Below are positions 55,330 to 64,000 of a stretch of 64,000 nucleotides of DNA, piece after piece. Position numbers and translations under genes: made by a program. The number at the start of each line of letters is the position of its first letter. Position 1 is the stretch's first letter. Below the pieces are notes generated by a model that saw nothing but the letters and a program-made list of their open reading frames with translations, ran no database searches and was not told the DNA's origin. The stretch is from Lentibacter algarum (lineage in GTDB: Bacteria; Pseudomonadota; Alphaproteobacteria; Rhodobacterales; Rhodobacteraceae): NCBI RefSeq assembly GCF_018860975.1, contig NZ_JAHKQI010000010.1:434001-498000 (forward strand). Reading direction: 5' to 3'.

Positions 55330-55434
55330 CTAAATGACCAGCTTAATGGCGTAGGCCACCACACCAAGGACGATGACACTGGCGAGCCATAAGGCCAAAA
55401 ACCACGCCCATTTCGACAAAAGAGGGTATTTCAT
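55330..55434 (-). CDS. DUF2474-type small subunit of a bd-type quinol oxidase
   Basis: A 34-residue single-pass protein, MKYPLLSKWAWFLALWLASV followed by IVLGVVAYAIKLVI. Its ATG shares one base with the cydB stop (TGATG). It matches the tiny DUF2474 proteins found behind cioB/cydB, analogous to CydX, which stabilise the oxidase. No larger gene occupies the spot. Confidence 0.8.
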   Translation of the reverse strand: MKYPLLSKWAWFLALWLASVIVLGVVAYAIKLVI

Positions 55435-56438
55435 CAGTGATACCCTTCTGCCGGGTCAATTTTGCCACGGAAGACCCAATAGGCGTAGGCTGTGTATGCG
55501 AGGATGATCGGTACTAAGACAACAGCCCCAACCAGCGCAAAAGCGAGGCTGCTATCAGGGGCGGCGACTTGCCAAATGGTCAGCGAGGGTGGCACCATCA
55601 TCGGATAGAAGCTGATCCCGATGCCGATGAAGCTGACGACGAAGAAACCCAGTGCGGACAGGAATGGTTGCAAATCCTTGCCGTCGTTTAAGCTGGTAAA
55701 GAACACCCAAACAAGGCCGAGCATGACAACTGGAACCACCATTGAAACCAAACTACCAGGCAGGTTGAACCAACGCTCGAAATAGATCGGGTCCAGGAAT
55801 GGGGTGATCAGGCTGACAATGCCGATGAGGCCAAGCGTGCCTGCCCCAAGCCACCACGCGTAGCGACGCATCTGAACGTTCAATTCTCCTTCAGTTTTGA
55901 GTACGAGCCACGTTGCTCCAAGCAACGCGTAGCCGACAACAACGGCAAAGCCTGTGAGGATCGAAAATGGGGTAAGCCAGTCAAACCAATCGCCCGCATA
56001 AGCGCGACCAGAGATCTCAATTCCTTGGACCAATGCGCCAAGTGCGATGCCTTGTGCAAAGGCCGCTACAATGGAACCGCCGAAGAACGCGTAGTTCCAG
56101 AAGCCTTTCCAGCGGACTGTACGCCAGCGATATTCAAAAGACACACCACGAAAGACCAGCGCAAGGAGCATGATAGTGATCGGCATATAGAGGGCGGGCA
56201 TAATGATGGCATAGGCGAGCGGGAAAACGGCGAACAATCCGCCGCCTCCTAGGACAAGCCAGGTTTCATTTCCGTCCCAGACAGGGGCGACAGAATTCAT
56301 CATCAAGTCCCGATCTTTTTCAGACCTAGCGAAGGGATACAAAATCCCAATGCCAAGGTCGAAACCATCGAGGATGACATAGACGAGCACGGCAAAAGCA
56401 ATGAGGCCGGCCCAGATAAAAGCAAGATCGAATATCAT
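55434..56438 (-). CDS. cydB: Cytochrome bd-type quinol oxidase subunit II
   Basis: 334 residues, about eight helices. FAVLVYVILDGFDLGIGILY (about 12-31), WDGNETWLVLGGGGLFAVFP near 55-74, and GSIVAAFAQGIALGALVQG near 120 are typical of CydB/CioB. It pairs with CydA to oxidise ubiquinol with O2. The start MIFDLAF has AAGGAG upstream; it lies 10 nt after cydA. Confidence 0.94.
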   Translation of the reverse strand: MIFDLAFIWAGLIAFAVLVYVILDGFDLGIGILYPFARSEKDRDLMMNSVAPVWDGNETWLVLGGGGLFAVFPLAYAIIMPALYMPITIMLLALVFRGVSFEYRWRTVRWKGFWNYAFFGGSIVAAFAQGIALGALVQGIEISGRAYAGDWFDWLTPFSILTGFAVVVGYALLGATWLVLKTEGELNVQMRRYAWWLGAGTLGLIGIVSLITPFLDPIYFERWFNLPGSLVSMVVPVVMLGLVWVFFTSLNDGKDLQPFLSALGFFVVSFIGIGISFYPMMVPPSLTIWQVAAPDSSLAFALVGAVVLVPIILAYTAYAYWVFRGKIDPAEGYH

Positions 56439-56448
56439 AGCGGTCTCC

Positions 56449-57858
56449 TTATCTGCCAGGAATAAAGTCGGGATCGACTTGAGGAGCAGGCGTGATGCCT
56501 GCAGTTCGAATGGGGCCGTCGTTGAGGCCAACGTTCGGAGTTGCCGGTCTCTTGTTCATCATCCGTAGGATGTAGAATGTGCCCGCGCCAAAGACGAAGA
56601 AGTAGACAACGATGAAAGCGATGAGCGAAGCCGCAACAGCCGGTGCTGCAACCGGCGCAAGGCTATCGGATGTGCGCAGCAATCCGTAAACTGTGAAGGG
56701 CTGTCGCCCGACCTCAGTTGTGATCCAGCCTGCCAACACGGCGATGAAACCGGTAGGGCCCATCAAGATTGCGGTGCGGTGCAACCATGGGGCGGTGTAA
56801 AGATGACCTCTCCAGCGGGCGAAAAGTGACCACGCCCCAAGGCCCAACATCGCAAAACCAAGGCCGACCATAATCCGGAAGCTCCAGAACACAATTGCGA
56901 CGGGCGGCTCATCTTGGTCGGGGATCGTGTCGAGCCCGTCCATAGGCGCGTTCCAGTGGTGTTTGAGGATCAGCGAGCTCAGATAAGGAATTTCGATTGC
57001 GTAGTCGATGCGCTTTTCTTCAGGGTTCGGAATACCAAACAAGATCAACGGCGCACCTTCTGGATGACTATCGTAATGGCCTTCCATTGCCATGATCTTC
57101 GCGGGTTGATGCTCTAGCGTGTTCAGGCCATGCAAATCACCTGCGTAGATTTGCAAAGGGGTCACAATGGCCAGCATCCACATCGCCATGGAAAACATGC
57201 GACGTGCTTCTTTATCCGCCTTGTCGCGCAGCAGATGAACAGCACCGACGGCGCCAACTACAAGCGCGGTCGTCAGGAAAGCCGCGATGACCATATGCAC
57301 CAACCGGTATGGGAACGACGGGTTGAAGACGATCTCCCACCAATCTTCGGGGACGAACTGACCAACCTCGTTGATGCTATAGCCAGCGGGCGTTTGCATC
57401 CAGCTGTTTACCGACAAAATCCATGTGGCTGATATCAATGTCCCGAAGGCGACCATGGCTGTGGCAAACATATGCAGGCGTTCGCCGACCCGCTCCCGCC
57501 CAAATAGCATGACACCTAGGAAGCCGGCTTCGAGGAAGAAGGCCGACATCACTTCATAGGCCATCAGCGGCCCCACGACGGGCCCGGCCTTGTCAGAGAA
57601 AACGGCCCAATTGGTCCCGAATTGATAGGACATCACGATGCCGGACACGACGCCCATGCCAAAGGCCACCGCAAAAATCTTCTTCCAATAGGAAAATAGC
57701 GTAAGATACGTCTCGTCCCGCGTCTTTATCCAAAGTCCGTTAAGCACGGCCAGATAGCTGGCGAGGCCAATGGAAAAACACGGGAAGATGATGTGAAACG
57801 ACACCGTAAACGCGAACTGTACGCGGGCAAGTGTTTCTGCAGAAAAACTTTCCAACAT
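56449..57858 (-). CDS. cydA: Cytochrome bd-type quinol oxidase subunit I, cyanide-insensitive (short Q-loop) type
   Basis: 469 residues. His22 (FTVSFHIIFP) and a later RLVHMVIAA His are haem ligands, and the quinol loop includes LEHQPAKIMAMEGHY. The protein is shorter than E. coli CydA (522), so the Q-loop is the short form of the CioA branch. Such oxidases resist cyanide and sulfide and do not pump protons. It follows peroxiredoxin by 34 nt. Confidence 0.93.
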   Translation of the reverse strand: MLESFSAETLARVQFAFTVSFHIIFPCFSIGLASYLAVLNGLWIKTRDETYLTLFSYWKKIFAVAFGMGVVSGIVMSYQFGTNWAVFSDKAGPVVGPLMAYEVMSAFFLEAGFLGVMLFGRERVGERLHMFATAMVAFGTLISATWILSVNSWMQTPAGYSINEVGQFVPEDWWEIVFNPSFPYRLVHMVIAAFLTTALVVGAVGAVHLLRDKADKEARRMFSMAMWMLAIVTPLQIYAGDLHGLNTLEHQPAKIMAMEGHYDSHPEGAPLILFGIPNPEEKRIDYAIEIPYLSSLILKHHWNAPMDGLDTIPDQDEPPVAIVFWSFRIMVGLGFAMLGLGAWSLFARWRGHLYTAPWLHRTAILMGPTGFIAVLAGWITTEVGRQPFTVYGLLRTSDSLAPVAAPAVAASLIAFIVVYFFVFGAGTFYILRMMNKRPATPNVGLNDGPIRTAGITPAPQVDPDFIPGR

Positions 57859-57892
57859 GGCTGGCCTCTTGTTTGCTAATTAAGTCTGCGGA

Positions 57893-58528
57893 TCAGCCTG
57901 CACCAATGTCAACAGTGCGCAGGTAAGGGCGGATTTCCTCGAAACCCTGCGGGAATTTGGCAGCAGCTTCGGCATTTGAAACCGACGGCGGGATGATCAC
58001 GCGATCGCCGGGTCGCCAGTCGGCAGGCAAGGCCACGCCTTTGGCATCCCCTGTTTGAAGCGCATCAATCACACGGATAATTTCATCGAAGTTGCGACCA
58101 ACGCTCATCGGATAGGTCATCGACAGGCGCAGCTTTTTTTCTGGATCAATGATGAAGACAGATCGAACAGCTGCTGTAGCCGACTCACCCGGATGGATCA
58201 TTTCGTAAAGTGCGGCGACCTTGCAATCTGGATCAGCCACGATTGGGAACCGCAAGGTTGTGTTTTGCGTATCATTGACGTCTTCAATCCATTTGAGGTG
58301 CTCTTCGGTGGTATCGGTGCTAAGACCAATGGGCTTAACGTCCCGCGCGGCAAACTCGGATGCCAGCTGTGCGGTGCGGCCCATTTCCGTGGTGCAAACC
58401 GGCGTGAAGTCCGCAGGATGGCTGAAGAAAAAAGCCCATTCATTTCCAATCCAGTCATGAAACGAAATCGGACCTGTTGTTGTGTCAGCGGTAAAGTCTG
58501 GAACGATGTCCCCAAGAAGCAATGTCAT
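57893..58528 (-). CDS. 1-Cys peroxiredoxin, Prx6 type
   Basis: 211 residues. The peroxidatic Cys45 is in FTPVCTTE, with Arg in AVRSVFIIDP and the C-terminal GDRVIIPPSV and FPQGFEEIRPYLR segment of the Prx6/AhpC-TSA group. It reduces H2O2 or organic hydroperoxides and possibly reacts with sulfane sulfur. It is the first gene of the Prx-cydA-cydB-DUF2474 operon. A 17-bp palindrome lies 54 nt upstream. Confidence 0.92.
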   Translation of the reverse strand: MTLLLGDIVPDFTADTTTGPISFHDWIGNEWAFFFSHPADFTPVCTTEMGRTAQLASEFAARDVKPIGLSTDTTEEHLKWIEDVNDTQNTTLRFPIVADPDCKVAALYEMIHPGESATAAVRSVFIIDPEKKLRLSMTYPMSVGRNFDEIIRVIDALQTGDAKGVALPADWRPGDRVIIPPSVSNAEAAAKFPQGFEEIRPYLRTVDIGAG

Positions 58529-58581
58529 TGTATTCTCCTATTGTTGTCTTAACCTCATATAGGTGGTGCCGGTGCCAGCTT

Positions 58582-58598
58582 CAGTGACAATGTCACCT
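58582..58598. promoter_or_regulatory. 17-bp palindromic operator, copy 1
   Basis: CAGTGACAATGTCACCT, a GTGAC-N3-GTCAC palindrome, lies between the divergent peroxiredoxin (54 nt to ATG) and Rrf2 (49 nt) genes. It is the exact reverse complement of copy 2 (59806-59822). A Crp/Fnr-type target is suggested by the TGAC half-sites. Confidence 0.8.
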
Positions 58599-58647
58599 AT
58601 CTTGCATAAAGATATAAAGTAAATATAAGTTAACGACAGGAGGCACA

Positions 58648-59118
58648 ATGAAGCTCACTTCATACACCAATTTCGCCATGCGCTCTTTGCAGTTGGCCGC
58701 GCTGAAAGCACCGGATTTGATTCGTGTTGATGATGTCGTTCGTATCCATGGACTTGCACGTCCGCATATTGTGAAGATCGTGCATGAACTGGGGCAAGCC
58801 GGTTATATCAAAACGCAGCGCGGGCGCGGTGGTGGGTTTCGGCTCGCGAAGCCAGCCGAGGAAATCATCGTCGGTGATGTCGTCCGTCTGACAGAAGGCC
58901 CCTTGGATCTGGTCGAGTGTTTCAATCCGGAAAACAACACCTGCCCGCTGATCGACATCTGCAAACTGTCACGCGCTTTGCAAGAAGCAACACGCGCGTT
59001 CATGGCGGTCCTCGACGATTTAACGCTGGCCGATATCGCATCAAACCGGAATGATCTTTTGGCACGGATTGCCCCCTTGGAAGACGGCATCATTGCCCCT
59101 GTCAGGAGTGCCAAATGA
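58648..59118 (+). CDS. Rrf2-family transcriptional regulator with three-cysteine cluster
   Basis: 156 residues. The N-terminal winged helix starts MKLTSYTNFAMRSLQLAALK, with the wing QRGRGGGFRLAKP near 58-70. Cys91, Cys99 and Cys105 (ECFNPENNTCPLIDICKL) match the NsrR-like iron-sulfur pattern, so NO, redox or sulfur species could be sensed. It overlaps the Crp/Fnr gene by 4 nt. Confidence 0.88.
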   Translation: MKLTSYTNFAMRSLQLAALKAPDLIRVDDVVRIHGLARPHIVKIVHELGQAGYIKTQRGRGGGFRLAKPAEEIIVGDVVRLTEGPLDLVECFNPENNTCPLIDICKLSRALQEATRAFMAVLDDLTLADIASNRNDLLARIAPLEDGIIAPVRSAK

Positions 59119-59780
59119 CCATCTTGGATTGGACCGAACGATTTAAAGGAACAGCCGCCCTCCCGAAAGATGTTCGGGAACGGTTGAACAAATCCGCGCG
59201 CATCACCCATTTGAAAAAGGGCGATCAGGTGTTCGGGCCGATGAACATTCCTGATAGTCTGTTCTTCCTTTATGACGGGCGCATCCGTGTCTCCCAAACC
59301 TCGGAAGCCGGGCGCGAGATTGTGCTGTACCGGATCGAAGCGGGGGAAAGCTGTGTTTTGACCACTGCCTGCATGTTGGCCGAAGAGGCGTATAATGCGG
59401 AAGGGATTGCCGAAACCGACGTGACCGTCGTGGTCTTGCCCAAACCTGCGTTTGATCGTTTGTCATCCGAAGAAGACGCGTTTCGTAACTTTGTCTTTGC
59501 CGCCTATTCACGCCGCTTGATCGATCTGCTGCGCGTTGTGGACGACGTCGCCTTCGGGCGCATCGATGTCCGTCTGGCTGAACGGCTTTTGACCCTTGGT
59601 GACGTGCTGAAAGAAGTGCGTGCAACCCATCAGGACCTTGCAAGCGAACTTGGCACCGCCCGTGAAGTGATTTCGCGGGTATTGAACGACTTTCAAAAGC
59701 GCGACCTGATCGAGCAATCGCGTGGATTGATTACGCTCAAAGACAAGGCTGGGCTTGAGGCGATCGCGCACTCCGCCTAA
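59115..59780 (+). CDS. Crp/Fnr-family transcriptional regulator with a C-x5-C pair
   Basis: 221 residues. A cyclic-nucleotide-like sensor domain (1-130), a dimer helix, and a helix-turn-helix with TAREVISRVLNDF (181-193), whose Glu184, Ser187 and Arg188 match the FNR-type E-x2-S-R recognition pattern. It lacks FNR's N-terminal cysteine cluster, but Cys80 and Cys86 (ESCVLTTACM) sit in the sensor domain where a thiol or polysulfide switch is conceivable. Probable binder of the 17-bp palindrome; this is inference. Confidence 0.86.
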   Translation: MTILDWTERFKGTAALPKDVRERLNKSARITHLKKGDQVFGPMNIPDSLFFLYDGRIRVSQTSEAGREIVLYRIEAGESCVLTTACMLAEEAYNAEGIAETDVTVVVLPKPAFDRLSSEEDAFRNFVFAAYSRRLIDLLRVVDDVAFGRIDVRLAERLLTLGDVLKEVRATHQDLASELGTAREVISRVLNDFQKRDLIEQSRGLITLKDKAGLEAIAHSA

Positions 59781-59805
59781 CAGTTTTTTCGTGTTTCTGT
59801 CGGTT

Positions 59806-59822
59806 AGGTGACATTGTCACTG
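59806..59822. promoter_or_regulatory. 17-bp palindromic operator, copy 2
   Basis: AGGTGACATTGTCACTG, exactly the reverse complement of copy 1, lies 56 nt before the DUF2892 start. It probably gives joint control of the sulfur operon and the oxidase operon. Confidence 0.8.
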
Positions 59823-59851
59823 ACGATCCATTTTTGAAGTTATATCGTAAT

Positions 59852-59870
59852 CCTAACTTTAAACGTTAGG
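59852..59870 (+). promoter_or_regulatory. Small hairpin overlapping the DUF2892 ribosome site
   Basis: CCTAAC-TTTAAAC-GTTAGG; the right arm includes part of the AGGAG site (59868-59872), so folding could reduce translation of DUF2892. It might instead be an operator half of another regulator. Confidence 0.45.
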
Positions 59871-59878
59871 AGATCGTT

Positions 59879-60094
59879 ATGACACCCAATGTAGGCACCA
59901 TCGACCGCCTCTTTCGCGCAGCTTTGGGCGCGGTTCTGTTCTATCTTGCATTCGCCAGTGGCATGCAGTTTTTTGCGTCACCGCTGTTTAAATACGGTGC
60001 AGCACTTGTCGGTATTGTAATGCTCGCCACGTCGGCGTTCAAGATGTGCCCGATCTATTCGATCCTCGGCCTCAAGACCTGCAAGGACTGCTAA
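59879..60094 (+). CDS. DUF2892-family small membrane protein
   Basis: 71 residues. TIDRLFRAALGAVLFYLA, a second helix, and CPIYSILGLKTCKDC at the end. DUF2892 is the membrane half of YgaP (rhodanese-membrane protein), and members occur in sulfide-detoxification operons. The C-terminal CKDC pair may bind sulfane sulfur, by inference. First gene of the sulfur operon, 2 nt before the YeeE gene. Confidence 0.85.
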   Translation: MTPNVGTIDRLFRAALGAVLFYLAFASGMQFFASPLFKYGAALVGIVMLATSAFKMCPIYSILGLKTCKDC

Positions 60095-60095
60095 G

Positions 60096-60527
60096 GTGGA
60101 GACGTTGTTCACACCTTTCACGTCTCTTGGCGGCGGTTTGTTGATTGGTCTTGGCGCTGTGCTGCTCATGCTCGGCTTGGGTCGTATACTTGGCGCAACT
60201 GGCATTATGTCGGGCATTGTCTTCGCTGAAAACGGGGGTGAGTTTGCATGGCGCGCGGCGATGGTTGCAGGCATGATCCTCGCACCGGGTTTTATCTTTC
60301 TGGTCACAGGCGCGATGCCAGAGCTGTCTGTTCCGGTCAGCCCGGCAATGATCGTCATCGGCGGCGTTATCGTCGGGTTCGGCGCAAGTCTTGGCTCTGG
60401 CTGTACGTCAGGCCACGGCGTGTGTGGCCTCTCACGATTGTCGGTGCGCTCTATCGTGGCCGTTCCGACGTTTATGCTGACCGCCGCAATCACAGTCTAT
60501 CTCATCCGTCACGTTTTTGGAGCGTAG
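60096..60527 (+). CDS. YeeE/YedE-family transporter half, first
   Basis: 143 residues starting at GTG, four helices. GASLGSGCTSGHGVCGLSRLSVRS (about 93-116; the GCTSGHGVCG block) is the sulfur-binding signature of YeeE/TsuA/PmpA-type transporters, with both Cys conserved. The full transporter needs the following gene as its partner. Likely moves thiosulfate or a sulfane-sulfur species across the membrane. Confidence 0.88.
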   Translation: METLFTPFTSLGGGLLIGLGAVLLMLGLGRILGATGIMSGIVFAENGGEFAWRAAMVAGMILAPGFIFLVTGAMPELSVPVSPAMIVIGGVIVGFGASLGSGCTSGHGVCGLSRLSVRSIVAVPTFMLTAAITVYLIRHVFGA

Positions 60528-60530
60528 TCC

Positions 60531-60962
60531 ATGAAACTAATCTTCGCCCTCGTAACCGGCCTCGTCTTTGGCGCAGGCATTGCCATTTCTGGCATGATGA
60601 ATCCGGCCAAGGTTTTTAACTTCTTTGATGTGGCTGGCACATGGGACCCCAGCCTTGCGTTCGTGATGGGCGGTGCGGTTATCATCACGTTCATTGGCTA
60701 TCGCTTGGTCTGGCGCCGCGATGCACCGCTTTATGACGACCGGTTTCAGGTGCCCACTTCAACCGCGATTGATGCGCGCCTGATTGGTGGATCGGCCATC
60801 TTTGGTATCGGGTGGGGGATCGCGGGCTTTTGTCCCGGTGCCGCAATTCCCGCACTTGGAACGGGCCGCTGGGAAGTCGCCCTGTTCTTGGTTGCGGTCA
60901 CCGCAGGGTTCTACGCGCGCCGACTGATCGGGGCGACCCAAACCTCAGCAAAGGCAGCGTAA
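60531..60962 (+). CDS. YeeE/YedE-family transporter half, second (DUF6691-like)
   Basis: 143 residues, four helices. GAGIAISGMMNPAKVFNFFD (about 14-33) and GIGWGIAGFCPGAAIPAL (about 95-112) are the conserved blocks; the single Cys in GFCPG is a candidate sulfur-relay residue. It follows the first half by 3 nt. Two-gene YeeE pairs (PmpA/PmpB type) are common in persulfide operons. Confidence 0.88.
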   Translation: MKLIFALVTGLVFGAGIAISGMMNPAKVFNFFDVAGTWDPSLAFVMGGAVIITFIGYRLVWRRDAPLYDDRFQVPTSTAIDARLIGGSAIFGIGWGIAGFCPGAAIPALGTGRWEVALFLVAVTAGFYARRLIGATQTSAKAA

Positions 60963-61017
60963 AGCGTTCACGACATTTTGGCGGCTGACAGTCGCTTGCA
61001 CTGAAATGGAGGACACA

Positions 61018-61899
61018 ATGAACTATCCCGTAGATATGAACATCACCCCAGAGGTCGAAGCCTTTTTTGATGAGCCGACCAACACGATCAGCTATGTTGT
61101 CAAAGACCCAAGCTCTGACGCATGTGCAATCATCGATAGCGTCATGGATTTGGACTATGCCGCTGGCCGGATCACACATGTGAGCGCCGATCTGATGATT
61201 GGCCATATTAAGTCACGTGGTCTGAAGTTGGAGTGGATCATCGAAACCCACGTCCATGCGGATCACTTGAGTGCCGCGCCCTACATCCAGCAGGAATTGG
61301 GCGGCAAAATCGGCGTTGGTGAAGGCATTATGATTGTCCAAGAGACCTTTGGTAAGGTCTTCAACGAAGGCACGGAATTCCAGCGCGACGGGTCGCAGTT
61401 TGACGCGTTGTTCAAGGATGGCGACACCTATCAAATCGGCAACATGACAGCTTTTGCGATGTTCACCCCCGGGCACACACCCGCCTGTATGGTGCACGTT
61501 ATGGGCAATGCCGCCTTTGCGGGGGATACGTTGTTTATGCCAGATGGCGGCTCGGCACGGGCGGATTTCCCAGGTGGGGACGCGGGCGTTCTTTACGATT
61601 CAATCATGAAGGTTCTGAGCTTACCCGACGCGATGCGCCTGTTCATGTGCCACGATTACGGTCCGGGTGGTCGCACAATCGCGTGGGAAACCACAGTGGC
61701 TGAGCAGAAAGCCAACAACATTCACGTCGGCGGCGGCAAAACCAAAGAAGACTTCATCAAGTTCCGCACCGAACGGGATGCGCAACTGGCGATGCCCAAG
61801 CTCATCATTCCGTCGTTGCAAGTGAACATGCGGGCGGGCGAAGTGCCGACGGATGAAGATGGCAATCCGATGCTCAAGGTGCCAATCAACAGTCTGTAA
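61018..61899 (+). CDS. Persulfide dioxygenase, ETHE1/Blh-like metallo-beta-lactamase fold
   Basis: 293 residues. The iron ligands sit in ETHVHADHLSA (His78, His80, Asp82, His83), with DFPGGDA near 184 and a C-terminal IIPSLQVNMRAG block that is typical of the ETHE1/Blh class. It oxidises glutathione persulfide to sulfite plus GSH with O2. GGAGGA lies 5 nt before the chosen ATG at 61018; an ATG 12 nt upstream is less likely. Confidence 0.92.
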   Translation: MNYPVDMNITPEVEAFFDEPTNTISYVVKDPSSDACAIIDSVMDLDYAAGRITHVSADLMIGHIKSRGLKLEWIIETHVHADHLSAAPYIQQELGGKIGVGEGIMIVQETFGKVFNEGTEFQRDGSQFDALFKDGDTYQIGNMTAFAMFTPGHTPACMVHVMGNAAFAGDTLFMPDGGSARADFPGGDAGVLYDSIMKVLSLPDAMRLFMCHDYGPGGRTIAWETTVAEQKANNIHVGGGKTKEDFIKFRTERDAQLAMPKLIIPSLQVNMRAGEVPTDEDGNPMLKVPINSL

Positions 61900-61913
61900 T
61901 TTAGGGGAAGATC

Positions 61914-63593
61914 ATGGAAATCAAAAAAATCACAGATAAGGTTTCTGTCTCTCCGCAAATTGCAGCAGCGGATATGGCCGACATTAAGAAAGCCGGTTTT
62001 CGGGCAATCATCTGCAATCGTCCCGATGGCGAAGGCGCAGACCAGCCCAGTTTCGAAGAAATTGAGAAGGCGGCGAAGAAAGCGGGCCTTACCGCAGTCT
62101 ACCTTCCAATTGCAGCTGGGATGGTCACAGATGAAAACGTAGAAGAATTCGGTGCGATCCTAAAGGAACTGCCACGACCCGTTTTGGGCTATTGCCGATC
62201 CGGCACCCGTTCAGCGACGCTCTGGTCCTTGCACGAAGCACAAAAACGCCCGTTGCCTGAAATTCTGGCGGCCACAAAGGCCGCGGGCTATGACATGAAC
62301 GGTGTCGCGCGCCGTGTCGCAAACGGAGGCAAAACGCCAACCCAACAGGGCGATGCGAAGTTTGATGTCGTGATTGTGGGTGGTGGGGCTGGCGGTATCG
62401 CTACCGCGTCTAGTTTGCTCGCCCGTAAGTCGGGACTTTCGATTGCTATCATCGACCCCTCCGACGTCCATTACTATCAACCGGGTTGGACCATGGTTGG
62501 CGGAGGGGTGTTCGACGCACGCGACACCGCGAAGACGATGGGATCGCTCATCCCGCGTGGCGTGAGGTGGATCAAAGCAGCGGTCGCCGCGTTTGAGCCA
62601 AAGAACAACGCGGTCATTCTCGACGGTTGTACAGTGGTCACCTACGATCGCCTTGTTGTGGCTCCGGGGCTGAAGCTTGATTGGGGTGCAATTGAAGGGC
62701 TCGAAGACACGCTGGGCCGCAATGGCGTGACGTCGAACTATCGCTACGATCTTGCGCCCTACACGTGGCAGCTTGTTCAGGAATTGAAAGAAGGCCGCGC
62801 ACTGTTTACCCAGCCGCCGATGCCTATCAAATGCGCAGGTGCGCCGCAAAAGGCGATGTATCTGTCAGGTGATGCTTGGTTCCGTAACGGAGCGCTCAAA
62901 GACATTGATATTCAATTCATGAATGCGGGCGGGGTTCTGTTCGGGGTGAAGGAATACGTTCCAGCATTAATGAAATACATCGAGAAATACGATGCGACGC
63001 TGAATTTCTTCCATACGCTGACATCCGTTGATGGTGCGGCCAAGAAGGCGACGTTCAAAGTGGCCAAGCCGGACGCCGATCCGACGGAAGTTACCGTCGA
63101 TTTCGACATGATGCATGTTTGCCCACCGCAGGTTGCACCAGATTTCATTCGCGTTTCTCCTCTTGCCGACGCCGCCGGCTGGGTCGATGTCGATCAAGCA
63201 ACGCTGCGGCATAGGACCTTTGACAACATCTGGGCCTTGGGTGACGTGATGAACGCGCCAAATGCCAAAACGATGGCCGCCGCCCGCAAGCAGGCCCCGA
63301 CCGTCGCCGAGAACATCGTGGCCGACATCAATGGCGGTTCGCCGGTGGCGCAATATGATGGCTACGGGTCCTGCCCTCTGACAGTCGAGCGCGGTAAAAT
63401 CGTACTGGCCGAATTTGGCTATGGCGGCGCGCTCAAGCCGAGTTTTCCATCTTTCCTTCTGGACGGTACGAAGCCAAGCCGCGCGGCATGGTTCCTCAAG
63501 GAAAAGATACTCCCGCCGATCTACTGGCAGGCCATGCTCAAGGGCAAAGAATGGCTGGCCAAACCCGAAGAGATCAAGGTTTCCGTTGAATAA
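61914..63593 (+). CDS. DUF442 (Cys-phosphatase/sulfurtransferase-like) domain fused to sulfide:quinone oxidoreductase
   Basis: 559 residues. Residues 1-115 form a DUF442 domain with the loop GYCRSGTRSATLW (Cys94), like a tyrosine-phosphatase or rhodanese P-loop. Residues 150-559 are SQR: FAD motif GGGAGG (156-161), HYYQPGWTMVGGG near 187-199, redox Cys307 (IKCAGAPQKA) and Cys403 (HVCPPQ), and a C-terminal membrane-association segment. SQR passes electrons from H2S to ubiquinone and makes a sulfane sulfur that DUF442 could transfer to glutathione. In Blh proteins of other bacteria DUF442 is fused to the dioxygenase instead. Confidence 0.9.
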   Translation: MEIKKITDKVSVSPQIAAADMADIKKAGFRAIICNRPDGEGADQPSFEEIEKAAKKAGLTAVYLPIAAGMVTDENVEEFGAILKELPRPVLGYCRSGTRSATLWSLHEAQKRPLPEILAATKAAGYDMNGVARRVANGGKTPTQQGDAKFDVVIVGGGAGGIATASSLLARKSGLSIAIIDPSDVHYYQPGWTMVGGGVFDARDTAKTMGSLIPRGVRWIKAAVAAFEPKNNAVILDGCTVVTYDRLVVAPGLKLDWGAIEGLEDTLGRNGVTSNYRYDLAPYTWQLVQELKEGRALFTQPPMPIKCAGAPQKAMYLSGDAWFRNGALKDIDIQFMNAGGVLFGVKEYVPALMKYIEKYDATLNFFHTLTSVDGAAKKATFKVAKPDADPTEVTVDFDMMHVCPPQVAPDFIRVSPLADAAGWVDVDQATLRHRTFDNIWALGDVMNAPNAKTMAAARKQAPTVAENIVADINGGSPVAQYDGYGSCPLTVERGKIVLAEFGYGGALKPSFPSFLLDGTKPSRAAWFLKEKILPPIYWQAMLKGKEWLAKPEEIKVSVE

Positions 63594-63715
63594 GCGACTG
63601 CCTTGAATGGTGCCGCAGTCCGTCTGGTTGTCCTTGCCACGGCGGTCTGCGGTCATAAAATTTACCGACGCCCACGCGAGATGTGCCAAGCGCCGCCATT
63701 TCTGGACCAACTGCC

Positions 63716-64000
63716 ATGAGAACACTTCGCCAATTCCTCCCAATCCTTGATTGGGGCAGCCGCTATGATCGCAATGCTTTATCAAATGACATGATTGCAG
63801 CTGTGATCGTGACAATTATGCTGATCCCGCAATCTTTGGCCTATGCTCTGCTGGCCGGACTGCCGCCTGAGGCGGGTATCTATGCGTCCATTGCCCCCAT
63901 CGTTCTTTATGCGATCTTTGGCACAAGTCGCGCGCTCGCGGTTGGCCCCGTCGCAGTCGTGTCGCTTTTGACGGCGTCGACCATCGGTCAAGTGGCCGAA
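63716..64000 (+). CDS. SulP-family anion transporter (N-terminal part)
   Basis: Partial gene: 95 codons before the right edge. MRTLRQFLPILDWGSRYDRN is followed by IMLIPQSLAYALLAGLPPEA and FGTSRALAVGPVAVVSLL, the classical SulP helix 1-3 motifs. Expected role is sulfate, sulfite or bicarbonate transport at the inner membrane. Located 122 nt after SQR, it might move the sulfite or sulfate end product. The C-terminal STAS domain lies outside. Confidence 0.9.
   Translation, partial: MRTLRQFLPILDWGSRYDRNALSNDMIAAVIVTIMLIPQSLAYALLAGLPPEAGIYASIAPIVLYAIFGTSRALAVGPVAVVSLLTASTIGQVAE

What the first reader, a model, noticed from the sequence alone, without database searches (positions are those of the whole stretch)
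55330..64000. Sulfide-oxidation block joined to a bd-type oxidase and two sensors
Peroxiredoxin, CydA/CydB and DUF2474 face Rrf2-Crp/Fnr, DUF2892, two YeeE halves, a persulfide dioxygenase, a DUF442-SQR fusion and SulP. Together they could take H2S to sulfite and pass the electrons through ubiquinone to O2 via a sulfide-resistant oxidase. What is unusual is the physical and apparently regulatory pairing of the oxidase with SQR and dioxygenase. SQR, PDO and cytochrome bd roles are established; their integration here is inference.
Basis: partly seen in the sequence, partly recalled or inferred. Interest (0 to 1): 0.8.

Follow-up and report, generated by a model that had tools for sequence, protein, structure and literature searches.

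The report
Sulfide-oxidation and sulfide-proof oxidase regulon
A marine bacterium carries, side by side and under the same predicted DNA switches, the enzymes that burn toxic hydrogen sulfide and an oxygen-using enzyme of a kind that sulfide does not poison.

Summary
The block is real: DUF2474, CydB, CydA (short Q-loop, CIO type) and a 1-Cys peroxiredoxin diverge from Rrf2, Crp/Fnr, YgaP-TM, two YeeE halves, persulfide dioxygenase, DUF442-SQR and SulP. The claimed regulatory pairing now has sequence support. A dyad, GTGAC-N3-GTCAC, stands before both arms with the same promoter geometry (about -41). Among 15 other family genomes holding both genes, cydA lies within 10 kb of the fusion SQR in 4 (0.11 expected). 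Three CydA clades have linked members. Linked oxidases with a crp on the locus and a visible promoter carry the dyad in 13 of 14 cases by script (the 14th has it before prx); those without crp, 0 of 8. In the own genome the two best matches to the extended motif are these promoters. A second dyad, AAGTTA-N11-TAACTT, tracks rrf2 and overlaps the core promoters of rrf2-crp and the sulfide operon. The Crp/Fnr protein keeps a C-x5-C pair (C80 50 of 50, C86 47 of 50 relatives), a plausible persulfide sensor. Signals, binding and expression are untested. Linkage is a minority state: 11 of 16 genomes with both genes keep them apart.

The parts
55330..55434 (-). DUF2474, 34-aa single-TM CydX-like subunit
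   Evidence: ORF; Pfam DUF2474 E 1.4e-5, 25.5 bits vs cut-off 26.6
55434..56441 (-). CydB (Cyt_bd_oxida_II)
   Evidence: Pfam E 8e-101
56449..57858 (-). CydA, short Q-loop (CIO-type) cytochrome bd subunit I
   Evidence: Pfam E 5e-166; about 62 residues of the E. coli chain skipped at the Q-loop; H22, H188, M330 near-invariant in 82 CydA
57893..58528 (-). 1-Cys (Prx6-type) peroxiredoxin, first gene of the leftward operon
   Evidence: AhpC-TSA + 1-cysPrx_C
58556..58561 (-). predicted -10 (TATATG) of the leftward prx-cydAB promoter, class II spacing to the dyad
   Evidence: TA at offset 35 from dyad start in 8 of 11 leftward promoters; coordinates
58584..58596 (.). dyad 1, GTGACAATGTCAC: predicted Crp/Fnr operator for prx-cydAB
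58609..58631 (.). dyad 2, AAGATATAAAGTAAATATAAGTT: predicted Rrf2 operator over the core of the rrf2-crp promoter
58648..59118 (+). Rrf2-family regulator with Cys91, Cys99, Cys105 (RirA/NsrR-like)
   Evidence: Pfam, NCBIfam; three Cys in 16 of 16 relatives of at least 60% identity
59115..59780 (+). Crp/Fnr-family regulator with C80-x5-C86, predicted persulfide sensor/activator
   Evidence: Pfam; C80 50 of 50, C86 47 of 50 relatives of at least 45% identity; overlaps rrf2 by 4 bases
59808..59820 (.). dyad 1, GTGACATTGTCAC: predicted Crp/Fnr operator of the sulfide operon, 71 bp before ygaP
59837..59859 (.). dyad 2, AAGTTATATCGTAATCCTAACTT: predicted Rrf2 operator over the core promoter of the sulfide operon; only exact match to the searched pattern in the genome
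59879..60094 (+).
   Evidence: Pfam PF11127
60096..60527 (+). YeeE half 1 (Sulf_transp)
   Evidence: Pfam PF04143
60531..60962 (+). YeeE half 2 (DUF6691)
   Evidence: Pfam PF20398
61006..61899 (+). persulfide dioxygenase (type II PDO)
   Evidence: Closest PDB chains 9g8t, 4efz, 4ysk; NCBIfam Blh dioxygenase half, below cut-off
61914..63593 (+). DUF442 sulfurtransferase fused to a human-SQOR-like SQR
   Evidence: Pfam/NCBIfam; PDB 6mp5 E 3e-93; two cysteines (C307, C487) aligned with those of the human enzyme
63683..64000 (+). SulP anion permease with STAS domain (start; continues to G000:C1:499446)
   Evidence: directly downstream of sqr in 71 of 74 loci

Best explanation
The block is a dedicated two-promoter regulon. 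Rrf2 and Crp/Fnr form one small operon. The Crp/Fnr protein, predicted to be switched by (per)sulfide at its C80-x5-C86 pair, binds GTGAC-N3-GTCAC dyads centred near -41 and activates as a class II activator in two directions: leftward prx-cydA-cydB-DUF2474, and rightward ygaP-yeeE-yeeE-pdo-DUF442/sqr-sulP. Rrf2, an Fe-S type repressor, binds a 23-bp dyad (AAGTTA-N11-TAACTT) over the core of its own (rrf2-crp) promoter and of the sulfide operon, so it gates both the activator and the sulfide genes. The output is a sulfide-respiration bypass. SQR reduces ubiquinone with H2S, DUF442 and PDO turn the persulfide into sulfite, SulP/YeeE move anions or sulfane sulfur, and the quinol is oxidised by a CIO-type bd oxidase instead of the sulfide-poisoned haem-copper oxidases. 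The Prx handles peroxides or persulfides. Shown here by sequence: genes, dyads, their co-occurrence with the regulators, promoter geometry, non-random and repeated linkage. Inferred: which protein binds which dyad, the signals, the direction of regulation, electron flow.
For: Dyad 1 (at most 1 mismatch) lies 40-300 bp before a gene of the sulfide module in 47 of 48 loci with crp beside it and 5 of 25 without (Fisher 2e-12); 52 of 73 loci in all, against a mean of 1.1 and a maximum of 6 for 59 same-letter control palindromes. A TA step at one fixed offset in 50 of 76 sulfide-operon promoters (mean 3.4 over 42 offsets) and 8 of 11 leftward prx/cydA promoters. SQR-linked cyd operons with crp on the locus have the dyad in 13 of 14 by script (the 14th, L040, has it before prx), without crp 0 of 8, unlinked cyd 1 of 59; one linked row (L025) had no visible promoter. 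In the own genome the two best matches to the extended motif are these two promoters. Exact dyad 1 occurs 11 times there (control pattern 2): 2 in the block, 8 covered by ORFs of 110-878 aa, 1 over a likely start codon by eye. Dyad 2, in promoters that carry dyad 1: at most 3 of 12 mismatches in 25 of 25 of rrf2 loci, at least 4 in 44 of 44 others; the limit of 3 was set after seeing the data. CydA falls in three clades with linked members in each, and one clade for the 12 linked type-A CydA is rejected (p-AU 3.4e-7; named after the first tree was seen). CIO O2 uptake is unaltered by high H2S and its expression enhanced in P. aeruginosa (PMC10968556, abstract).
Against: No binding, expression or physiology data. 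Linkage is a minority state: 5 of 16 sampled genomes with both genes. With phylogeny controlled, informative pairs are few: crp-dyad 1 mean 3.5 the same way, 0.0 the other, 2.4 no difference; rrf2-dyad 2 mean 3.6, 0.0 and 1.4; median p 0.125 for both. Dyad-2-like sites (up to 2 mismatches) are no commoner in the own genome than the control pattern (3 and 5 against 5 and 3 on the two strands). G009 has an exact dyad 1 before a type-B cydA but no crp at E<=1e-8, and five SQR loci without crp upstream have a dyad (one of them, L061, has crp downstream), so another protein may use it. L035 has dyad 1 before a partial rrf2 without any prx/cyd hit. The dyad spacing (GTGA-N5-TCAC) is one base shorter than the usual N6 of Crp/Fnr sites (recalled). 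Persulfide sensing rests only on the conserved C-x5-C.
Confidence: 0.7

Rival explanations
1. The module answers nitric oxide (or iron/Fe-S status) first. The Rrf2 is an NsrR/RirA-like sensor whose ancestral partner is cydAB, a bd oxidase that also recovers from NO; the sulfide operon was added because sulfide and NO stress coincide.
For: Rrf2 scores nearly equally to RirA (124.9 bits) and NsrR (119), below both cut-offs. CX7CX5C kept in 16 of 16. Dyad 2 is 23 bp, the length reported for NsrR sites (PMC9338935, passages). In G003 a 72% identical Rrf2 is divergent to cydAB with a dyad-2-like site between (3 of 12 mismatches) and no SQR match in the genome. nsrR/hmp and cydAB are both induced by sulfide in A. 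baumannii (PMC7315123, passages).
Against: No hmp, nor or other NO gene among the annotated genes of the block. In most of the relatives' loci the sulfide operon has crp but no rrf2 (of 73 loci, 48 have crp and 16 rrf2). The dyad at the cyd promoter is dyad 1, which tracks crp.
Confidence: 0.25
2. Dyad 1 is bound by a general Crp/Fnr regulator (Fnr-, Dnr- or cAMP-type) and marks low-oxygen control, so oxidase and SQR are co-regulated by oxygen supply, not by sulfide.
For: bd oxidases are commonly low-oxygen genes (recalled); G009 has the dyad without a close crp; five SQR loci without crp upstream have it.
Against: Dyad 1 tracks this crp (47 of 48 vs 5 of 25). Only the two block sites of the 11 exact matches in the own genome are clearly intergenic, so it does not look like a global operator. 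There is no cysteine before C80, so no Fnr-type N-terminal Fe-S motif (sequence).
Confidence: 0.15
3. Simple neighbourhood: a laterally moving island of stress genes in which oxidase and sulfide arms are each autonomous; the dyad between them serves only rrf2-crp autoregulation.
For: Linkage is patchy, the rightward rrf2 promoter has its own -35-like CTTGCA next to the dyad, and L035 keeps the dyad without any prx/cyd hit.
Against: The GA that follows the dyad and the -10 spacing point leftward, to prx-cydAB, in 11 of 11 and 8 of 11 cases. In five loci with rrf2 but no prx/cyd hit (L024, L057, L065, L072 and G043's L160) the dyad is missing from the rrf2 promoter; L004, which seems to keep the start of prx, has it. 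bd-I-type oxidases carry it at their own promoter.
Confidence: 0.1

Closest known systems
BigR/SqrR-controlled yeeE-yedE-pdo operons and the bigR-blh operon (A. baumannii, Serratia, Xylella, Agrobacterium)
   Same: PDO, DUF442 sulfurtransferase, paired YeeE halves, a dedicated sulfur-responsive regulator (PMC7315123 and PMC5823870, passages)
   Different: Regulator there is ArsR-type; with the genome's Sox-linked ArsR as query no hit was found within 6 kb of SQR in 25 crp-less loci here. DUF442 is fused to PDO in Blh, to SQR here. No oxidase in those operons.
Sulfide-induced cytochrome bd (E. coli, A. baumannii, M. tuberculosis) and P. aeruginosa CIO
   Same: bd/CIO oxidase sustains respiration under sulfide and is sulfide-induced (PMC7315123 passages; PMC10968556 abstract)
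   Different: There the oxidase is described apart from the SQR/PDO operon; here it shares dyad, promoter geometry and locus with SQR/PDO.
CstR/cst and FisR systems (sqr-pdo with transporter)
   Same: SQR + PDO + anion transporter under a persulfide-responsive regulator (PMC7315123, passages)
   Different: Regulator families differ (CsoR-type repressor, recalled; sigma-54 activator); no oxidase or Rrf2 in those operons as described there.
NsrR/RirA (Rrf2) regulons
   Same: Rrf2 protein with three C-terminal Cys, 23-bp dyad before its own gene
   Different: Targets are sulfide oxidation and its own activator; below both equivalog cut-offs.
CIO-type cytochrome bd with DUF2474 (subtype C)
   Same: Short Q-loop CydA, DUF2474 behind cydB (PMC5322542, passages)
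   Different: Linked to SQR and a shared predicted operator.

Membership tests
CIO-type cytochrome bd oxidase | CydA lacks the long Q-loop extension | tested here: met
   Alignment to E. coli CydA skips about 62 residues at the Q-loop; longest aligned hits 470 (A), 474 (C) and 560 aa (B)
CIO-type cytochrome bd oxidase | haem ligands (two His, one Met) kept | tested here: met
   H22, H188, M330 near-invariant (95% or more) in 82 CydA; their role as ligands is recalled from E. coli, aligned
CIO-type cytochrome bd oxidase | insensitivity to cyanide/sulfide | not testable with these tools
   needs oxygraphy; inferred from P. aeruginosa CIO (PMC10968556 abstract)
SQR (human SQOR-like) | FAD fold with the two redox cysteines | tested here: met
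   PDB 6mp5 E 3e-93; KCAGAPQK and SCPL cysteines align; their redox role is recalled
Persulfide dioxygenase (type II) | MBL fold with HVHADH and downstream metal-site motifs | tested here: met
   Alignments to 9g8t, 4efz and 4ysk keep ETHVHADH, TPGHTPACM, GDTLFMPD; the PDB names are generic, PDO identity of those chains is recalled
NsrR | equivalog score | tested here: not met
   119 bits vs 182; not filed as NsrR
RirA | equivalog score | tested here: not met
   124.9 bits vs 193; not filed as RirA
Rrf2 superfamily, Fe-S type | Rrf2 domain and three C-terminal Cys | tested here: met
   Pfam E 6e-31; Cys 16 of 16; a bound cluster was not testable
Crp/Fnr family | cNMP-binding domain plus HTH_Crp | tested here: met
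   Pfam PF00027, PF13545
Known persulfide sensors (SqrR/BigR, CstR, FisR) | membership by sequence | tested here: not met
   Pfam and NCBIfam place it in Crp/Fnr; only the dithiol idea is shared
Persulfide sensing by a Cys pair | reversible per/polysulfide modification | not testable with these tools
   C80 50 of 50, C86 47 of 50 is permissive only

The most novel reading that the evidence does not exclude
A previously undescribed Crp/Fnr subfamily, recognisable by G-x-S-C-x5-C in the ligand-pocket region and by GTGAC-N3-GTCAC operators, is a dithiol persulfide sensor and class II activator. Its regulon is an 'oxidase socket': quite different bd oxidases (CIO-type and bd-I-type) have repeatedly been placed under its operator, so that each SQR gets its own sulfide-resistant electron sink. 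In the window's lineage an Rrf2 Fe-S repressor has been added as a second gate.
Probability: 0.4. Interest if true: 0.75.

Novelty: new variant of a known kind. Interest (0 to 1): 0.6.

Why it matters
Sulfide-oxidising heterotrophs are thought to be an important marine sulfide sink, and sulfide poisons haem-copper oxidases. How cells match SQR electron input to a sulfide-proof oxidase has been seen as separate stress responses. This locus offers a compact, testable circuit: one predicted sensor, two operators, one oxidase, one SQR. It names the binding sites to mutate and predicts a new class of sulfane-sulfur sensor.

Tried and rejected
ArsR (SqrR/BigR-type) control of the crp-less loci: with the genome's own Sox-linked ArsR as query, 0 of 25 such loci had a hit within 6 kb, and 1 of the other loci did; what regulates the crp-less loci is open. 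Other targets of dyad 1 in the genome: the SoxZ site (L088) and the other 7 exact sites examined lie in ORFs, so probably chance; the C11 site was read by eye as overlapping a start codon. Two 2-mismatch sites of the extended motif (L210, L211) lie inside ORFs. Dyad-2-like match at C1:255370: overlaps the end of one gene, 31 bp before a BASS-type transporter (recognised by eye); not counted as a target. SulP as outsider: rejected, it follows sqr in 71 of 74 loci. A phylogeny-controlled sign test had too few supported pairs to be decisive. Structure prediction was not used.

Rows dropped or set by hand. L001, L093 and L144 were removed as duplicates; four CydA rows (L052, L094, L095, L107) were missing from the first tree because my translation ran into a stop before the gene, and are. 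L083-L092 were left out of the locus database. L025 was dropped because its promoter lies off the locus. 8 of 81 loci with under 4 kb before sqr were left out of the tables. L108 was set by hand to 'unlinked', L095 to 'crp present' (its crp lies on the same contig, in L201). Genome sizes and cydA counts were typed.
Full report
Observation. Every gene in the finding is present and correctly named. The leftward arm is prx-cydA-cydB-DUF2474. The rightward arm is rrf2-crp (overlapping by 4 bases), a 98-bp gap, then ygaP-TM, two YeeE halves, PDO, DUF442-SQR and SulP. SulP runs past the window end; in the genome it is complete, and it follows sqr in 71 of 74 loci with enough flank. CydA is the only one found in the genome and is of the short Q-loop, CIO type. 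SQR is closest to human SQOR and keeps both cysteines. PDO keeps the metal-site motifs of the closest solved chains. The genome also has a Sox cluster elsewhere (genes recognised by eye), so thiosulfate or sulfite could be taken further.

Is the pairing random? The family sample is 120 genomes, each of another genus. By my count of the rows, 29 have the fusion SQR and 16 of these also a full-length CydA. In 5 of the 16 (window genome, G105, G098, G004, G034) the two are within 10 kb. Leaving out the window genome this is 4 of 15 against 0.11 expected, P about 3e-6. In four genomes a second, non-fused SQR lies within 4 kb of cydA (G025, G044, G083, G110). Among the 80 best SQR loci from the species collection, 16 have cydA within 10 kb, in three arrangements: divergent (9), same strand with a bd-I-type oxidase (4), and cydAB directly before sqr (3). 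Contig ends make this a lower bound, and the two samples share at least two genomes. Against: 11 of 16 keep the genes apart, and 13 of 29 fusion-SQR genomes have no full-length CydA.

Repeated recruitment. CydA falls in three clades (78 rows, supports 84, 99 and 100). In the fuller tree of 82 rows SQR-linked members are 12 of 35, 8 of 21 and 3 of 26. The label needs 12 changes, and a single clade for the 12 linked members of the window's clade is rejected (p-AU 3.4e-7). This was a quick tree under one model, and the group was named after the first tree was seen.

Dyad 1. GTGAC-N3-GTCAC stands at window 58584-58596, between the arms, and at 59808-59820, before the sulfide operon. In relatives it recurs at almost the same distance, 69-76 bp before ygaP. 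Of 73 loci with enough flank, 47 of 48 with crp beside the operon have it 40-300 bp before a module gene, and 5 of 25 without. 59 same-letter control palindromes give at most 6 loci, mean 1.1. In 20 further loci fetched around crp, most without a full fusion SQR on the stretch, 18 have it (exact or one mismatch, by eye) between crp and the next module gene or before ygaP; L192 and L202 do not. For the oxidase, linked cyd operons with crp on the locus and a visible promoter have it in 13 of 14 by script; the 14th, L040, has it before prx. Linked operons without crp have it in 0 of 8 and unlinked ones in 1 of 59. That one, G009, has no crp at E<=1e-8 and is unexplained. G034, linked but without crp on the locus, has a 40% identical Crp elsewhere.

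Geometry. Measured from the dyad's first base, a TA step lies at offset 35 in 50 of 76 sulfide-operon promoters (3.4 on average over 42 offsets) and in 8 of 11 leftward prx/cydA promoters. If this TA opens the -10 element, the dyad centre is near -41, the class II position (recalled). The GA that follows the dyad on the promoter side is in 54 of 76 and 11 of 11, so the divergent dyad is oriented to the oxidase arm. In five loci with rrf2 but no prx/cyd hit (L024, L057, L065, L072, L160) the dyad is missing before rrf2. L004, which seems to keep only the start of prx (by eye), still has it, and so does L035, which has a partial rrf2 and no prx/cyd hit (an exception).

Dyad 2. AAGTTA-N11-TAACTT, 23 bp, overlaps the -35/-10 region of rrf2-crp (58609-58631) and of the sulfide operon (59837-59859). 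Among promoters that carry dyad 1, those of rrf2 loci have at most 3 of 12 mismatches in 25 of 25 cases and the others at least 4 in 44 of 44; the limit was chosen after seeing the numbers, and L035 counted as without rrf2. L072 has rrf2, no crp, a perfect dyad 2 and no dyad 1. L132 has the same arrangement without crp: no dyad 1, and dyad 2 before rrf2 only. By another count 14 of 16 rrf2 loci have it before the operon's first recognised gene; L010 and L072 do not, and L078 has it without rrf2. A dyad of 23 bp fits NsrR sites (PMC9338935, passages).

Own-genome regulon. With the extended motif the two best hits in 3.65 Mb are the two block promoters. Exact dyad 1 occurs 11 times (control 2): 2 in the block, 8 covered by ORFs, 1 over a likely start codon. 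The dyad-2 pattern has one exact match, the sulfide-operon promoter, but matches with up to 2 mismatches are no commoner than the control. So the Crp/Fnr regulator looks local; for Rrf2 the genome-wide picture is less clear.

Phylogeny control. On the SQR tree crp changes 12 times and dyad 1 9 times. Independent pairs on well-supported branches go the same way in 3.5, the other way in 0.0 and do not differ in 2.4 (means); for rrf2 and dyad 2, 3.6, 0.0 and 1.4. Median p is 0.125 in both, so this test alone is not significant.

Regulators. Crp/Fnr has Cys80 in 50 of 50 and Cys86 in 47 of 50 relatives. PDB 3dv8, a distant relative, keeps the pair. The stretch corresponds to the ligand pocket of CRP (recalled). 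The recognition helix has R-E-x3-R, as CRP, which reads GTGA (recalled), and AREVxSR is invariant in the 50. Rrf2 has Cys91/99/105 in 16 of 16 and falls below the NsrR and RirA cut-offs. A close Rrf2 (E<=1e-38) is found in 6 of 120 genomes, in 4 beside cydAB (G000, G105, G034 and G003, the last without an SQR match), in G043 before the sulfide operon, and in G083 elsewhere. The module may thus join an Rrf2-oxidase pair and a Crp-sulfide-operon pair.

Mechanism and literature. PMC10968556 (abstract) reports that CIO oxygen uptake is unaltered by high H2S and that its expression is enhanced. PMC7315123 (passages) reports cydAB induction by sulfide, and SQR/PDO operons under FisR and BigR. PMC5823870 (passages) reports DUF442 as a sulfurtransferase. 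PMC5322542 (passages) ties DUF2474 to CIO. Of PMC8657789, PMC12345210, PMC9995734 and PMC5863699 only passages were seen. Ten searches of the open library listed no paper recognisable as being about this Crp/Fnr, its dyad or an SQR-oxidase regulon. Several lists were cut (for example 20 of 104), most listed papers were seen as titles and abstract starts only, and subscription papers are mostly missing, so this is weak evidence of absence.

Verdict. Sulfide as the signal and the electron route remain inference.

Noticed in passing
L206 (G000:C7:804000-812000): Sox cluster (soxA/Z/Y and others recognised by eye) with an ArsR regulator and a full-length YeeE-type transporter elsewhere in the genome.
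   Followed up: partly
L101, L104, L106, L095 (G025, G044, G083, G110): A second, non-fused SQR sits within 4 kb of a bd-I-type cydAB in four genomes: another SQR-oxidase linkage.
   Followed up: partly
L094:5063-5075 (G009): Exact dyad 1 before a bd-I-type cydA in a genome without an SQR match or a detectable crp of this type.
   Followed up: partly
L126 (G003): Rrf2 divergent to cydAB with a dyad-2-like site, no SQR match in the genome: perhaps the ancestral half of the module.
   Followed up: partly
L196:11614: Dyad 1 also about 140 bp before the non-fused SQR (sqr2) of G035.
   Followed up: no
PDB 3dv8: A Crp/Fnr protein with solved structure keeps the C-x5-C pair; it could be inspected for the Cys-Cys distance.
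   Followed up: no
L009, L025, L196, L200, L201: Another peroxiredoxin homologue (45-47% identical) recurs on crp loci with the non-fused SQR or bd-I-type oxidase, so Prx may be a regular member of the regulon.
   Followed up: partly
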